Assembly: GCF_000969985.1 (NCBI RefSeq)
Contig: NZ_CP009526.1
Location: forward strand, 2,294,001-2,358,000
Reading direction: 5' to 3'
Length of the DNA stretch: 64,000 nt
Source of the DNA: Methanosarcina barkeri str. Wiesmoor
Lineage (GTDB): Archaea; Halobacteriota; Methanosarcinia; Methanosarcinales; Methanosarcinaceae
The stretch's first letter is position 1, and each line of letters opens with the position of its first letter. Below, piece after piece: positions 36,382 to 44,233 of the stretch. Below the pieces are notes generated by a model. The model had not been told where the DNA came from, ran no database searches, and was given only the letters and a program-made list of their open reading frames with translations. A program made the translations under genes and the position numbers.

Positions 36382-36404
36382 CCCCTAAGTCTTTAGCTTA
36401 GGGG
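36382..36404. other. left-end hairpin of the IS200/IS605 element
   Basis: CCCCTAAG and CTTAGGGG form a perfect 8-bp stem with a 7-nt TCTTTAG loop. It overlaps the 3' end of tnpA, as expected for the single-strand transposition signal. Confidence 0.75.
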
Positions 36405-36771
36405 ATATAAGCGTCAACTTCACCCCCTGATTTCGTATATAATATTCTACCGTCTCTTTACTAACATTTCCGATTGTAGACGCAAAATATCCATCACTCC
36501 ATAACATATTTTCACCCCAATAATACTTTTCCAGATATTCTTTTTGTGTTTTCCATAACCCGTTCGTAGATTCTTGTTTCAATTTTCTGACAATAGATAA
36601 AACACTAACTTTTGGTTCACTCTTAATCAATAAATGAATATGGTCTTTGTCAGTTTCCATTTCAAGGATTTCAAAGTTAGACTCTTTTGAAATGTCAATC
36701 ATAATCTGTTTGAGTTCTTCGCTAATTGGTTCAAGTATGACTTTTCGGTATTTGCAAACGAAAATAATGTG
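36385..36771 (-). pseudogene. tnpA: IS200-type Y1 transposase (tnpA), N-terminally broken
   Basis: The minus strand encodes the Y1 HUH transposase core: HIHLLIKSEPKVSV (the HUH metal site), SDGYFASTIGNVSKETVEYY with the catalytic Tyr region and IRNQG. The frame continues upstream as HIIFVCKYRKVILEPISEEL but is closed by a TAA directly before it (about 36770). The first N-terminal strand and start codon are missing. An internal ATG (36702) would give a protein without that strand. It is probably inactive, so transposition would depend on related elements in trans. Confidence 0.7.
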
Positions 36772-36861
36772 TTACATTAACAAAAATTTGCTATGATTCC
36801 GTGTTTCATTCTTTATATTTACCAAAAAGTACATATATTGTTAAACCATTTAATACCTTGT

Positions 36862-37974
36862 ATGATGAAAGCGTTCAAATTTAGACTCTATCCTACAGCT
36901 ACACAAGCTGTTCAGTTAAATCAGCATATAGGTAGCTGTAGGTTTGTCTACAATTGGGCACTTGATCAGAAAATTAAAACTTATGAACAGACAGGAAAAT
37001 CAATTTCCAGATTTGACTTAAACAAAAAGCTTCCTGTCTTGAAAGCTTCTAATGAATGGTTAGGAGAAGTCAATTCTCAATCATTGCAGGGAATGACTAA
37101 GCAGGTTGAGTCTGCCTTCACTCGATTTTTCCGAGAGAAGAACGGCTTTCCTAAGTTTAAATCTAAGAAAAACCCAATTCAATCTTTTCCTGTACCTCAA
37201 CACTACTCCGTAGACTTTGAAAAAAACACTATCAAGCTCCCTAAAATAGAACCAATTAAAGCAGTTTTTCACAGGAAGTTTGAGGGCGAGCTTAAAACAG
37301 CTACTGTTTCAAGGACATGTAAAGGACATTACTACATTAGTATCCTTGTTGAAGATGGGAACGAACTTCCTACAAAACAGAAGTATTCAGAATCTACTAC
37401 AGTGGGTCTAGATGTTGGGATTAAGGATTTTGCTATACTTTCCACAAGAGAAAAGATTGAGAACCCTAACTACCTGAAAAACTCTTTGAACAGGTTAAAG
37501 GTTCTTCAAAAAAGAGTATCAAGGAAACAGAAAGGTTCTAAGAACAGGGTAAAAGCCAAACATAGGGTTGCTGTACTCCATGACAAAATAACTAATCAGA
37601 GGAACGACTTCCAGAACAAACTCTCTTTTAAACTCATAAGCGAAAACCAAGCAATAGCTCTGGAAACTCTGAATGTTAAAGGAATGGTTAAGAATCATCA
37701 TTTGGCACAGGCTATAAGTGATTCCGCATGGAGCAGGTTTGTAACAAAACTAGAGTATAAAGCTGAATGGTACGGAAAAACCATCCTGAGAATTGGGCAA
37801 TTTGAACCATCTTCTAAAGTATGTCATGTTTGTGGATATCATAATTCAGATTTGACATTAAAAGATAGAGAATGGACTTGCCCAGACTGTAAAACAAAAC
37901 ATGATAGAGATATAAATGCCGCTATCAATATCAAGAAATTTGCTCTCATAGATCAAAATCTAATTGGATTATAA
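36862..37974 (+). CDS. tnpB: TnpB, RNA-guided nuclease of IS200/IS605
   Basis: A 370-residue TnpB (OrfB), the compact RuvC-like nuclease ancestral to Cas12 that cuts DNA guided by an omega-RNA from the element's right end. It starts MKAFKFRLYPT. The RuvC acids are intact: Asp in VGLDVGIKDFA (about 183), Glu in IALETLNVKGM (about 265), Asp in HDRDINAAINI (about 350). A zinc ribbon, VCHVCGY...WTCPDC, lies between the last two. ATG 36862 or 36865 is chosen; the longer frame from 36793 has no homology. Length is normal. It appears functional. Confidence 0.92.
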   Translation: MMKAFKFRLYPTATQAVQLNQHIGSCRFVYNWALDQKIKTYEQTGKSISRFDLNKKLPVLKASNEWLGEVNSQSLQGMTKQVESAFTRFFREKNGFPKFKSKKNPIQSFPVPQHYSVDFEKNTIKLPKIEPIKAVFHRKFEGELKTATVSRTCKGHYYISILVEDGNELPTKQKYSESTTVGLDVGIKDFAILSTREKIENPNYLKNSLNRLKVLQKRVSRKQKGSKNRVKAKHRVAVLHDKITNQRNDFQNKLSFKLISENQAIALETLNVKGMVKNHHLAQAISDSAWSRFVTKLEYKAEWYGKTILRIGQFEPSSKVCHVCGYHNSDLTLKDREWTCPDCKTKHDRDINAAINIKKFALIDQNLIGL

Positions 37975-38785: not shown

Positions 38786-38977
38786 ATGGAAATCGTTCCT
38801 ATGGATATTCAGCATGTATTACAAAATGTAAAATTTCCTGCAAATAAGAATGACATAATTCAACAAGCAAGAAGTAGTGGTTCAATAGCGGATCCGCTAC
38901 TGGAGAACCTGGGCATGCTTCCAGATAAGGAATACGCCAACGCTAATGAAGTCGTCAAGGAACTTGAAAGAATTTAA
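38786..38977 (+). CDS. DUF2795 domain protein
   Basis: A 63-residue protein consisting of one DUF2795 domain: VLQNVKFPANKNDIIQQAR, then DPLLENLGMLPDKEYANANE. The family is small, alpha-helical and of unknown function. ATG 38786 is supported by a GGGGG ribosome-binding site; the frame extends to 38732 without homology. A long leader containing element B precedes it. Confidence 0.75.
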   Translation: MEIVPMDIQHVLQNVKFPANKNDIIQQARSSGSIADPLLENLGMLPDKEYANANEVVKELERI

Positions 38978-39456
38978 ATTTATCTTAAATCAAATAATCG
39001 TCAAATGGGGGACAAATCTTAAAAGTAGATTCTGCTGAATGTCAAAATTTAGGTTGTACTCTCCTTCAAGATGGGTAGCTTTATAGTGTATTTTGAAATA
39101 GAAAGTTTCACCATTTAAAATCTATAAGCTTTCTTTAAAGTTTTTTGCATGGTTGAATACATTATAGAAAGTATCACAGTTTCCTATTTGACGTAAAATT
39201 CAGGAGTCTCATAAGTCTCATAAGTCTCATAAGTTTCCTGAATTTTTCAGAAACAGATCCTCTAGTAAACAATCCTCATCTGTGCAATACTTATTAGCAT
39301 GAAAGTATGTGAGGAAATCTTCCTCACGTACTCTCTTCATCCTTTTTTCTCGTAATTTTCTGAAAACTGCCTTGGTTGTTCAAGCATGTGTTTTTGAAAT
39401 ATCTCATAGTTTTCGACTTTTTGCCTTCATTGAAAATTTTCAGTATCCATATCCTG

Positions 39457-39556
39457 AAGCTTCGGTTGAGGTAACAACTGCAGATTTTCGAATAATTCTC
39501 CAAAAACGATAGCAAGAAAAATGTTATTTTTTTGAAGACATCTGCGGAAAGTCAGG
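39457..39556 (+). repeat. interspersed repeat, copy 1 (inverted relative to 49671-49769)
   Basis: About 100 bp nearly matching the reverse complement of 49671-49769. The identical block tatttttttgaagacatctg, the cggttgag start and gaataatt...ccaaaaac are shared. No ORF. Both copies sit in long intergenic gaps. Confidence 0.7.
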
Positions 39557-39572
39557 CCCAAGATAATGATAT

Positions 39573-39709
39573 GATCAATAGTCAAAAAAGGTAAGACAAA
39601 AAGTACTTTCATTTAATTTGTGCCTGTTATTCGAAGAATTAGATCAATAGTCAAAAAAGGTAAGATAAAAAGTACTTTCATTTATTTGTGCCTGTTATTC
39701 GAAGAATTT
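39573..39709. repeat. direct tandem duplication, 69-bp unit x2
   Basis: Unit 1 (39573-39641) and unit 2 (39642-39709) differ by about two positions. They begin gatcaatagtcaaaaaaggt and end gttattcgaagaatt. Confidence 0.9.
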
Positions 39710-39976
39710 CATGTACGTTTAACATGAAAGTATGGAATCAAAGTTGCGCTGGCGCACCCAGAAGCAAGTTAGCGGGGTATGTCCGCGCCACCTCTCCAAA
39801 TTCCGTTAAAGGAACTAATAACCCTAAATAATTTAGTTTGAGCAGAAGTTAATAACAAAAAATAGAATTGAGAAATTCTATTGTCATCAACGGTTGTCGG
39901 AGAAGTTTTCCATTCCCGCAGCAAGCTAGCGAGGTATTCGAATGAAATAAATCAGGAGCTAGCTGAGTTTTTTATC

Positions 39977-41101
39977 TTACCAGACAGCGTTGTTTTTCAG
40001 AGTTGCTAGAATGTTTGTGAACTCGTTACTGAACCTGCAATTCCCAAAGTCCGGAGAACTCAGAATGTTCTTCTTTATTTCCTGCAGTCCGATCAGGAGA
40101 TTTATATCATCGCTGTATTCAAATCCTCCATCTGATGCCGTGATGTTTTCGGCAAGGACGTCAAGAAGCTTTGGGTCAAGGTCATTCGTTATGTATGTGT
40201 CCAGGATCAGAAGGTCCGAAATTCTCTTGTAGAAATCGATGAGCTCCTGGTAGCCAGGTATCGCGTAGGCTTTTGCCATCTGTTTTTGCCTGTTCAGGTA
40301 GATCAGGTAACGGGAAATTGTGCTTATTATGTTCTCGATACCCTCTTTTTTAGGGAACGCGATTGGGAACCTTTTCATCATCTGTGAATTAAGTTTGCCT
40401 CTGCTCTGTACCCCTTTGCGGTTCCAGACCTCAGGAAAAGCCCTTGCTATCGAAGAGTTGAGTACAGCCGTAACATAGAGATAGAGTGTGGGATCTCCAA
40501 GCACGACTCCGACACCGTTTGCAAAAACATTCTTTCCAGTAGGATCATATGAAGCTTGCAGGCGAGAGTTATTGGTAATGATAATTTTAGGGGTGTTTAT
40601 ATACCGCAGGAAACTTTCGTTCTCGAAGCGGTAATCAGCCAAAATGAGTTCCTGTGTTTCGGTCTCAGATTGCTGTTTGATTTCCATTGACTGCTGTTTG
40701 ATTTCCATTAGCTGTTTATAAGCTACAGGAAACTTTGCTTTTAGTTCCTCGGGCTGGAATATTCTGTATTCTTTCCTTATGTTATTGTCAAGGATTTCAT
40801 AAGGCACCATAAACTGGTACTGAGTTGACTGAACCGTAAATTCATTCGAAACGGAATCGTCTACATAAGGGTACATAAGTTCTTTTTCCATACCTGCCTG
40901 TTCTATACCCACATTTATGTGGGAGTCTCTGCAGACGCAGGATGCATCTGTGCAGTTTTCGCTTGAAAGGCCAGCTTTTTGTAAAAAATCGTTTGTGTGG
41001 GGTACACCTTCAAAAACTTCTATTGAAATGTCTTCTAGGGTTCTAGGGATTTTGCTCAGCCTTTCTATAATATAGTCCTTACTCCAGAACATATATTTCA
41101 C
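39977..41101 (-). CDS. TaqI-C-like (restriction/methylase specificity) domain protein, orphan
   Basis: A 374-residue protein resembling the C-terminal target-recognition part of type IIG restriction-modification enzymes and N6-adenine methylases (TaqI C-terminal family). Segments include FMVPYEILDNNIRKEYRIFQ, KFPVAYKQLME, TPKIIITNN, NVFANGVGVVLGDPTLYLYV, TAVLNSSIARAF and LNSQMMKRFPIAFP, typical of that region. No SAM-binding or NPPY catalytic motif is present, so it is not a methyltransferase by itself. A short CTDASCVC cysteine cluster occurs near residue 50, and MEIKQQS is duplicated near residue 135. The start is GTG 41101 or ATG 41092. No restriction partner is adjacent. Confidence 0.6.
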   Translation of the reverse strand: MKYMFWSKDYIIERLSKIPRTLEDISIEVFEGVPHTNDFLQKAGLSSENCTDASCVCRDSHINVGIEQAGMEKELMYPYVDDSVSNEFTVQSTQYQFMVPYEILDNNIRKEYRIFQPEELKAKFPVAYKQLMEIKQQSMEIKQQSETETQELILADYRFENESFLRYINTPKIIITNNSRLQASYDPTGKNVFANGVGVVLGDPTLYLYVTAVLNSSIARAFPEVWNRKGVQSRGKLNSQMMKRFPIAFPKKEGIENIISTISRYLIYLNRQKQMAKAYAIPGYQELIDFYKRISDLLILDTYITNDLDPKLLDVLAENITASDGGFEYSDDINLLIGLQEIKKNILSSPDFGNCRFSNEFTNILATLKNNAVW

Positions 41102-41389
41102 TTCTTTTTTATATATAGAGGGAATTCTGGGTAAACTGGTTTCTTTGTTGGGGGTTGGGTTCTCAAAAATTCGTCTTTGATTTTGAGGTACCTGATTGTT
41201 AACTCCTCAGAATCTCTATACTAAACTTTGAATATACCTTTTAATATAATAATTTATCCATAATAACGGTTAACAAATGAAACCGAACTTTTTAAGTTAA
41301 CAGAAAAAAGTGAAAACTAAAGCCATCGAGTGAAATCAGTCCTTTCAGAAAAAAGCAGGTTTTTTAGAATAAAGGAAATAATTCAAGGT

Positions 41390-42073
41390 TTACAAACCTG
41401 AAAAGACCTTCAATGCCTTTCTTGCATTATCCAGCATATTATGGTTGTTATTGAAATAAATGTAGGTCTTCTCAGGCCCGAATTCATGTATTTTCCTGAT
41501 AGTTTCGCTAATTTCCGCCTGAGAATAATCGTAACTGTACCAGTCTTCTCTTCCGTGCATTCTCATATACACGTTTTTTCCGGGGAAAATGCGGTTTTTG
41601 TAGTCCGGCGAGTCTACGGACACAAGGGTCACTTTCTTCATCAGCTCTTCACACGCCTCATCATTTCCCAGCAGGGCTTTATTCCTTATCTCCAGGGCAA
41701 ACCGTTTCCCAAGTTTTACGGCTTCTACAAACCTGAGTGCCCTTTCGACATCGTCAAACTTTGGAGGCACCTGGAATAAGTAAAAATCAATGAGATGGTC
41801 CATGGGTCGGAAAAGCTCAAGGAAATTTCCCAGAGTTTCCAGGGAACTTTCACTGAGTTGTCGCCAGTGGGTTATAGACCTGTGCACCTTTATGCTCCAT
41901 CGGAGTCCAGTCCCCTTACTGTTCCAGCCTTCAATCTGCTCAGGTGAGGGAAACCTGTAATAACTGGCATTAAGTTCAACACTGTTCAGCCCGGAGTTCT
42001 GGATAAACCAATCAAGGTTCTTCTTTTTGTTCCAATCATAATACCAACCGCTAGTGCCTACAAATGCCTCCAT
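41390..42073 (-). CDS. DUF72 (YecE-like) family protein
   Basis: A 227-residue TIM-barrel-like protein of the DUF72 family, function not firmly known. The N-terminus FVGTSGWYYDWN, SVELNASYYRFPSPEQIEGW, RWSIKVHRSITH, FQVPPKF and FALEIRNKALL, and the C-terminal YIYFNNNHN are diagnostic. AGGGG 5-6 nt before ATG 42073 supports the start. It is alone between non-related genes. Confidence 0.88.
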   Translation of the reverse strand: MEAFVGTSGWYYDWNKKKNLDWFIQNSGLNSVELNASYYRFPSPEQIEGWNSKGTGLRWSIKVHRSITHWRQLSESSLETLGNFLELFRPMDHLIDFYLFQVPPKFDDVERALRFVEAVKLGKRFALEIRNKALLGNDEACEELMKKVTLVSVDSPDYKNRIFPGKNVYMRMHGREDWYSYDYSQAEISETIRKIHEFGPEKTYIYFNNNHNMLDNARKALKVFSGL

Positions 42074-42426
42074 AAAATCCCCTTTTATAGATCGGTCTGA
42101 TAGCAGATCTATTTTTGGTTTATTCTACTTATAAGCAAAAGAAACAGTAAGCGAAAAACTTTGTAAGCAAAAAACTTGGTCTGGATTAGGGACCATTTAA
42201 GCGAAAAAGCTGAAATCGGCCTGCAGGTACTTAAGCGAAAAAAGGATGTCAGATTACATAGGTACTTGAATACAATTTTAACTATAATACCATTTTTACC
42301 ATTTTACCATTTTTATCATTTTTACAGAGCCATCAGGTAATTAAGCAAGTTCTTATCGGGTTATTAAAACAGGGTCTTCAGGTAAATAAAACAGGTTATT
42401 GTCAGGTAACATGAAACATGTTATTC
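42074..42426. other. intergenic with short repeated motifs
   Basis: No gene. Three copies of taagcgaaaaa and several of accatttttac occur (42140-42330), together with repeated caggta/acaggttatt motifs. Confidence 0.5.
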
Positions 42427-43452: not shown

Positions 43453-43570
43453 AAGACACCAACCAGATAAGTTAAGACGGCAGTAAGCTGTGAGTTTTTC
43501 TTATTTTTCGTGCGTAAAAATGAATCTTGGTTACAGATGCATAGGCACAATTACAGTATAATTAGTATAA

Positions 43571-43650
43571 TTACAGATATTATAAATATTACAGATATTA
43601 CAGATATTACAGATATTACAGATATTACAGATATTATAAATATTACAGAT
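43571..43650. repeat. tandem repeat, 9-bp unit (attacagat)
   Basis: About nine consecutive attacagat or ataaatatt units form the 3' edge of the M23 peptidase gene, whose stop codon lies within it. It is potentially a slippage site. Confidence 0.85.
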
Positions 43651-44233
43651 CTAATCGTTCAAGGTATCTGGTCGGGTCAATCAGGTTTTCAGGCATTTCT
43701 TCGGCAAACCAGTTGCCTCCAAGATAATTTTTGTGAGTGGTGATGGGTTCACTCCTCCAGACTTCAAAATGGAGCATACTTGGATTTTTGTTTTTCAGCT
43801 TCTGGATGTAAAGCGGGCAGAAATTATCGATTTTTTCGGGGTTCAGAACCATTCCAACATGCCCTATCAAGTTTCCTGCCTCTATTTTGTCTCCTTTTCT
43901 TACGGTAAAATCTGCAAGTTCCCCGTATTTGCAGAACAGTCCGCTGCTCTGTTCAATAATCACGTAATAAGTCGGGTTCCAGTAAGGCAATATTTCAGGC
44001 GAAGTCATCAGACCGGTATCTGCGACAATTCCTCCTTCGATCGAAACTACCTCCGTATTTTCAGGGGCATACAGATCAACCCCACAGTGATATCGGTCGC
44101 CTCTGTTTTCCCAGAAGGAGCCGGGTTCTCCTTTTTGCGGAACATGAATCTGTTTGAAGTTTGTGTTCTCAATGTCTACTTTTTCCAGCGCTGTATTTTC
44201 TTGAACCTTTATGTTTAGAGGCCAGATTCTCAT
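43643..44233 (-). CDS. M23-family (LytM-like) peptidase domain protein
   Basis: A 196-residue protein with the M23 zinc peptidase fold: HCGVDLYAPENTEVVSIEGG with the first zinc ligands His and Asp, AGNLIGHVG, and LHFEVW near the C-terminus, which supplies the later His. Bacterial homologs cut peptidoglycan; Methanosarcina has none, so a different substrate or regulatory role is likely. No signal peptide is visible, so it may be cytoplasmic. The start is ATG 44233. It is divergent from a small remnant. Confidence 0.78.
   Translation of the reverse strand: MRIWPLNIKVQENTALEKVDIENTNFKQIHVPQKGEPGSFWENRGDRYHCGVDLYAPENTEVVSIEGGIVADTGLMTSPEILPYWNPTYYVIIEQSSGLFCKYGELADFTVRKGDKIEAGNLIGHVGMVLNPEKIDNFCPLYIQKLKNKNPSMLHFEVWRSEPITTHKNYLGGNWFAEEMPENLIDPTRYLERLDL

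What the first reader, a model, noticed from the sequence alone, without database searches (positions are those of the whole stretch)
39977..41101. Orphan target-recognition protein without a methylase or nuclease
The protein resembles the TaqI-like C-terminal specificity region but lacks the catalytic motifs, and no restriction or methylase gene is nearby. It could be a standalone DNA-recognition subunit or an anti-restriction decoy.
Basis: inference. Interest (0 to 1): 0.5.

Follow-up and report, generated by a model that had tools for sequence, protein, structure and literature searches.

The report
Standalone, methylase-less DNA-recognition-domain relative in Methanosarcina
Methanosarcina archaea keep an intact gene for the DNA-reading half of a restriction-modification enzyme, without the methylating or cutting half and with its usual DNA-reading signature altered, which suggests a defence part reused for another, still unknown, binding job.

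Summary
The gene at 39977-41092 (-) (probable start ATG 41092, not GTG 41101) encodes 371 aa. Its family is homologous to the whole target-recognition domain (TRD) of Eco57I/type IIG-like adenine methylases (profile-profile E 9.4e-24), linked to M.BseCI and CamA structures. No methylase motif occurs in the 53 members compared. It is neither decay nor, as far as searched, a phage gene: an intact window-type copy is in 25 of 30 Methanosarcina genomes, an intact family member in 27 of 30, under purifying selection (omega about 0.13). A partner methylase looks unnecessary: a single-contig Methanosarcina genome rated 99% complete keeps two copies, but its only hits to four amino-methylase families fall on one RNA-methyltransferase-like gene. 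The TRD core is kept but the fused-TRD signature is not: a Trp in 28 of 28 fused TRDs is absent in 51 of 51 standalone ones, an Arg/Lys (27 of 28) became Asp/Glu (44 of 51), and mean net charge turned negative. Best reading: a domesticated, non-catalytic TRD-derived binding protein, probably not reading DNA in the canonical way. Ligand and function are untested.

The parts
40349..41077 (-). region homologous to fused TRDs (residues 6-248; the TaqI_C match is residues 149-244)
   Evidence: hhalign 99.6%, E 9.4e-24; PF12950
39980..40141 (-). C-terminal extension of about 54 residues (318-371), beyond the point where the fused enzymes end with their ELYGLTEEEI-type tail; inference from sequence comparison by eye
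   Evidence: matches of the model to TRD structures end near residue 302-305
41245..41274 (-). promoter-like block GTTAACC-N13-AATTATTATA, about 150-180 nt upstream of the ATG; only exact match of the pattern in the genome
41390..42073 (-). DUF72 protein, upstream neighbour on the same strand in 13 of 22 family genes examined

Best explanation
It is a non-catalytic protein derived from the target-recognition domain of an Eco57I/type IIG-like adenine methyltransferase. In the Methanosarcina lineage the TRD became a free-standing gene (inferred from the distribution), duplicated and stayed under purifying selection (shown). It works independently of a co-encoded amino-methylase (supported by one genome rated 99% complete, inferred for the rest). 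It keeps the TRD core but has lost the near-invariant Arg and Trp of fused TRDs and turned acidic on average (shown in the alignment), so it most likely acts as a binding or regulatory protein that no longer reads DNA in the canonical TRD manner; a protein partner, or DNA bound in another way, is inferred and untested. The confidence is for the domesticated, methylase-independent binding protein; for loss of canonical DNA reading alone I would say about 0.55.
For: Homology: hhalign E 9.4e-24; the standalone profile hits TRDs in enzyme-type frames at i-E 7.8e-25 to 3.7e-13 (E for a small set of frames); the 7-TRD profile hits the window protein at E 9.8e-20 and standalone members at best 1.2e-27, and M.BseCI/CamA at 1.2e-25/2.1e-16. 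A low-confidence model aligned best with CamA, M.BseCI and BrxX TRDs. Persistence: window-type copy in 25 of 30, any intact member in 27 of 30 Methanosarcina genomes (my count from the rows; 30 genus genomes as). NG86 omega median 0.13 (33 usable of 60 sampled pairs) for window-type genes and 0.19 (39 of 60) for the second clade. Standalone rows form one clade in the tree (support 0.64, long stem). Genome G176. 0 of 500 ORFs in 41 family loci carry [ND]PP[YFW]. Changed surface: CamA Trp434 column W in 28 of 28 fused, 0 of 51 standalone; Arg424 column R/K 27 of 28 against D/E 44 of 51; mean net charge per 100 aa +2.3 (25 non-halophile fused) against -1.4 (51).
Against: No function or ligand is shown. 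Arg424 and Trp434 are not named in the main text of the CamA paper (term search) nor among its listed base contacts, so their loss need not abolish DNA binding; the listed base-contact columns vary among fused TRDs as well. Twelve basic columns, for example R106, K107, R110 and R241, are conserved in at least 90% of the family. 10 of 51 standalone rows have positive net charge and 4 of 25 fused rows are zero or negative. Rows are related, so the charge difference is not a set of independent tests. The fused rows were picked by matching a profile made of fused TRDs, which favours rows with the usual signature. The clade support of 0.64 is modest. C5 methylases were not searched.
Confidence: 0.6

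Rival explanations
1. A free-standing sequence-specific DNA-binding protein (regulator or nucleoid protein) that keeps TRD-type DNA reading with a new specificity.
For: TRD core motifs kept and fold supported; conserved basic residues; window-type genes share a conserved upstream block, unique in the own genome, that could be an autoregulatory site.
Against: Loss of the R/W signature and mean negative charge. The upstream block is not found upstream of the second-clade genes, and with its TATA-like core it may be only a promoter.
Confidence: 0.25
2. A specificity subunit acting in trans on a methylase encoded elsewhere in the genome.
For: Own genome encodes Eco57I-like and type I methylases elsewhere; one PADLOC type IIG model matches 17 of 32 members.
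Against: G176 has no hit to four amino-methylase families beyond one RNA-methyltransferase-like gene, yet keeps members of both main clades. 0 of 500 ORFs in 41 family loci carry the [ND]PP[YFW] motif.
Confidence: 0.07
3. An anti-restriction decoy or inhibitor that competes with TRDs or binds R-M enzymes.
For: Acidic TRD-like protein.
Against: No homologue in the phage records or viral contigs searched, one 25%-identity plasmid match; persistent chromosomal gene, also in a genome without detected DNA amino-methylases.
Confidence: 0.04
4. A decaying fragment of a type IIG enzyme.
For: Only broken copies exist in G164 and G171.
Against: omega 0.11-0.18 in 33 window-type pairs, intact family member in 27 of 30 genomes, conserved upstream region and start.
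Confidence: 0.02

Closest known systems
TRD of Eco57I/type IIG-like adenine methyltransferases (M.BseCI, CamA, BrxX/PglX; lower in the structural list BpuSI and MmeI)
   Same: N-terminal TRD subdomain, TaqI_C domain and helical tail; motifs F.G, FP, Y, KI, D..G, LNS and P of FPI/PIP
   Different: No methylase or nuclease domain; invariant Trp and near-invariant Arg lost; acidic on average; extra C-terminal extension
Type I specificity subunit HsdS
   Same: Recognition-type protein without catalysis; weak PADLOC Specificity_I matches (at most 5 of 32 members for one model, best 7e-4)
   Different: One TRD-length region and no N6_Mtase gene within about 315 kb

Membership tests
Type IIG / Eco57I-like R-M enzyme | TRD homologous region | tested here: met
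Type IIG / Eco57I-like R-M enzyme | amino-methylase motif IV (NPPY type) and SAM motif I | tested here: not met
   0 of 53 members, by regular expressions
Type IIG / Eco57I-like R-M enzyme | nuclease domain | tested here: not met
   no nuclease family in the window protein; one of 32 members has a weak R-HINP1I match, E 0.012, taken as chance
Pfam TaqI_C (PF12950) | score over the gathering cut-off | tested here: not met
   17.3 against 26.5 bits for the window protein; among the rows only the standalone members of G159 and G177 exceed it
Type I specificity subunit (HsdS) | adjacent HsdM | tested here: not met
   nearest N6_Mtase about 315 kb away
Type I specificity subunit (HsdS) | two TRDs with spacer helices | tested here: not met
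   one TRD-length region, residues 6-248 of 371
Anti-restriction protein | inhibits restriction; typically carried by phage or plasmid (recalled) | tested here: inconclusive
   no phage or viral-contig homologue; inhibition not testable here
Sequence-specific DNA-binding protein | binds DNA | not testable with these tools
   only indirect signs

The most novel reading that the evidence does not exclude
Methanosarcina has domesticated a restriction-modification target-recognition domain into a genus-wide protein family that no longer reads DNA for methylation but binds another ligand, probably a cellular protein, through the old DNA cleft: a 'pseudo-TRD' class of regulators or adaptors.
Probability: 0.4. 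Interest if true: 0.65.

Novelty: new variant of a known kind. Interest (0 to 1): 0.45.

Why it matters
Orphan methylases recruited for host functions are well known (CamA is one; PMC8187626, abstract). I found no description of a recognition domain kept across a genus without any methylase in the listings I searched. A persistent family in methanogens with genetic tools (recalled) makes it directly testable whether a DNA-recognition module can be repurposed once freed from its enzyme.

Tried and rejected
Pyrrolysine: many second-clade hits were listed with '1 TAG inside'. In L002 the 358-aa ORF needs no TAG read-through and begins inside the match, so the TAG lies upstream of its ATG; most second-clade upstream sequences end in ...ATAG just before the ATG. 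Not checked hit by hit.

PDB phmmer hits to V-type ATPase subunit B (E 0.0016 and weaker) do not recur with the family profile: taken as chance.

AlphaFold2 with the window protein and 9 close orthologues failed (pLDDT 32.7). With the window protein, 7 orthologues and 8 viral fused TRDs it gave pLDDT 48.9, pTM 0.46. That alignment leans towards a TRD fold, so the structural match is support, not an independent test. Foldseek gave no match at E <= 0.001 (PglX 8c45 at rank 6, E 2.2). VIA-align gave Z 8.6 at best; the tool notes that models without a clear match reach a typical best Z of 7 to 8, and helical proteins mix in from rank 23.

Rfam found nothing in 38900-42200. Viral-contig scans with the family and with L002 found no relative. 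Literature: listings show no paper on a Methanosarcina orphan TRD by title or start of abstract (12 of 134 papers listed; 10 of 101). Of PMC10609329 I saw passages, of PMC8187626 the abstract, two sections and passages, of PMC11842806 passages.

Full report
What is there. The ORF at 39977-41101 (-) is real. Window-type orthologues start MFW[SN]K, which corresponds to ATG 41092; the GTG at 41101 sits inside an AGAAGTGA stretch just upstream that is itself largely conserved. The protein is then 371 aa. On its own it matches Pfam TaqI_C only weakly (E 0.0059, below cut-off), no NCBIfam or PADLOC model at E <= 1, and nothing credible in the PDB.

The family. Searching 185 genomes of the order found matches in 36, one of them (G131) a TRD inside a 1067-aa type IIG-like frame. 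In the genus, a window-type copy (at least 60% identical, essentially full length, no stop) is present in 25 of 30 genomes and some intact member in 27 of 30 (my count from the rows; 30 genus genomes as). G164 and G171 have only broken pieces, and G163 (73% complete) has none. Genera g4 and g5 of the same family also have members, one g5 window-type copy being interrupted (G082). The tree shows a window-type clade, a small related clade and a second large clade with modest supports at their base (0.53, 0.78, 0.81); the other copy in this genome (L002, 43% identity) is in the second. Selection is purifying: NG86 omega median 0.13 over 33 usable of 60 sampled window-type pairs and 0.19 over 39 of 60 second-clade pairs.

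Homology to TRDs. Of the 32 members of alignment A1, 30 match TaqI_C (E <= 0.1) and 17 match one PADLOC type IIG model (best 2.2e-13). A scan of 392 genomes of the phylum found 26 with matches: 16 of the genus, 4 of g5 and 6 others. In those six the match lies in open frames of 1047-1447 aa (five) or 465 aa (one). The five long ones carry an NPP[YFW] motif and align over the TRD; the 465-aa one lacks it and looks like the rear part of a broken enzyme. Profile-profile comparison with these six TRDs plus that of G131 gives 99.6% probability, E 9.4e-24, over residues 6-248. The seven-TRD profile hits the solved structures of M.BseCI (E 1.2e-25) and CamA (2.1e-16). A weak model (pLDDT 48.9; alignment half made of fused TRDs) aligned best with the TRDs of CamA, M.BseCI and BrxX/PglX (Z 8.6 to 6.4), then BpuSI (5.8) and MmeI (5.1) among unrelated helical proteins; Foldseek alone gave nothing significant.

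No partner needed. None of the own-genome hits to Eco57I, N6_Mtase, N6_N4_Mtase or MethyltransfD12 lies in the window; the nearest is about 315 kb away. G176, a single-contig genome rated 99% complete, has both a window-type and a second-clade copy. It has no Eco57I match, no D12 match, and its N6_Mtase and N6_N4 matches fall on one 360-aa gene that resembles TIGR01177 and Trm14-type RNA methyltransferases, below those models' cut-offs. A methylase of an unsearched class (C5) remains possible. None of 500 ORFs in the 41 family loci fetched for gene order carries an [ND]PP[YFW] motif. Recurrent neighbours: DUF72 upstream on the same strand in 13 of 22 family genes in 21 loci; for the second clade a GNAT acetyltransferase, a 7TM-PAS histidine kinase, a URO-D family protein, a cupin and a NosD/beta-helix protein. 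The other recurrent clusters were not scanned with Pfam, apart from the window's own neighbours. No homologue was found in phage records or viral contigs, and one 25%-identity match among plasmids.

A changed surface. Aligning 51 standalone members with 28 distinct fused TRDs, structural columns are kept: G347 of CamA is Gly in 28 of 28 and 51 of 51, K450 is Lys in 27 of 28 and 50 of 51, N498 is Asn in 27 of 28 and 51 of 51. The column of CamA Trp434 is Trp in 28 of 28 fused TRDs and in 0 of 51 standalone ones. The column of Arg424 is Arg or Lys in 27 of 28 fused, but Asp or Glu in 44 of 51 standalone (Lys in 2). Mean net charge over the aligned region is +2.3 per 100 aa (25 non-halophile fused; 4 not positive) against -1.4 (51; 10 positive). 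The fused rows were chosen by a profile of fused TRDs and the rows are related, so this is a description, not a test with independent samples. The CamA paper lists TRD base contacts at other residues, for example Gln346, Arg425, Gln438, Trp439 and Arg441. Those columns also vary among fused TRDs, as expected for specificity positions, so they do not decide. Arg424 and Trp434 are not mentioned in its main text, so their role (fold, phosphate contact or other) is open. Twelve basic columns stay conserved in at least 90% of the family.

Interpretation. The simplest account is a TRD freed from an Eco57I-like enzyme in an ancestor of the Methanosarcina group and domesticated. Whether it still binds DNA is undecided; the charge and signature changes lean against canonical reading. 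A C-terminal extension of roughly 54 residues beyond the usual tail of the fused enzymes could be a new interaction module (inference).

Print. Listings of searches for Methanosarcina with TRD, TaqI-like, type IIG or genus-specific terms show no description. Passages of an archaeal R-M survey, PMC10609329, name persistent R-M groups in Methanosarcinales, Methanosarcina or M. mazei (HG7, HG8, HG9, HG13, HG14, HG17) but, in what I saw, no orphan TRD.

Noticed in passing
41245-41274 (-): GTTAACC-N13-AATTATTATA block upstream of the window gene, about 150-180 nt before the ATG; its TTATTATAT part is present upstream of 18 other window-type genes, g5 included, and the pattern has one exact match in the genome. 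Could be a long-leader promoter or a regulatory site.
   Followed up: partly
L122-L141, upstream of second-clade genes: A different conserved block (TCATGATTTATATTTAT-like, mostly 235-257 nt before the ATG) stands upstream of 17 genes, of 44 family genes scanned.
   Followed up: partly
36385-37974: IS200/IS605-type pair: Y1 transposase-like ORF (-) and OrfB/TnpB-like ORF (+) next to a two-AAA-domain, Cdc48-like ATPase gene (the last name recalled).
   Followed up: no
43570-43650: Nine copies of a 9-base tandem repeat (ATTACAGAT) running into the 3' end of the M23 peptidase gene (43643-44233, -).
   Followed up: no
L130, L159, L133, L138 (G157, G155, G167, G158): Second-clade and small-clade copies stand close together, in G157 one of them truncated, suggesting local duplication and loss.
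   Followed up: no
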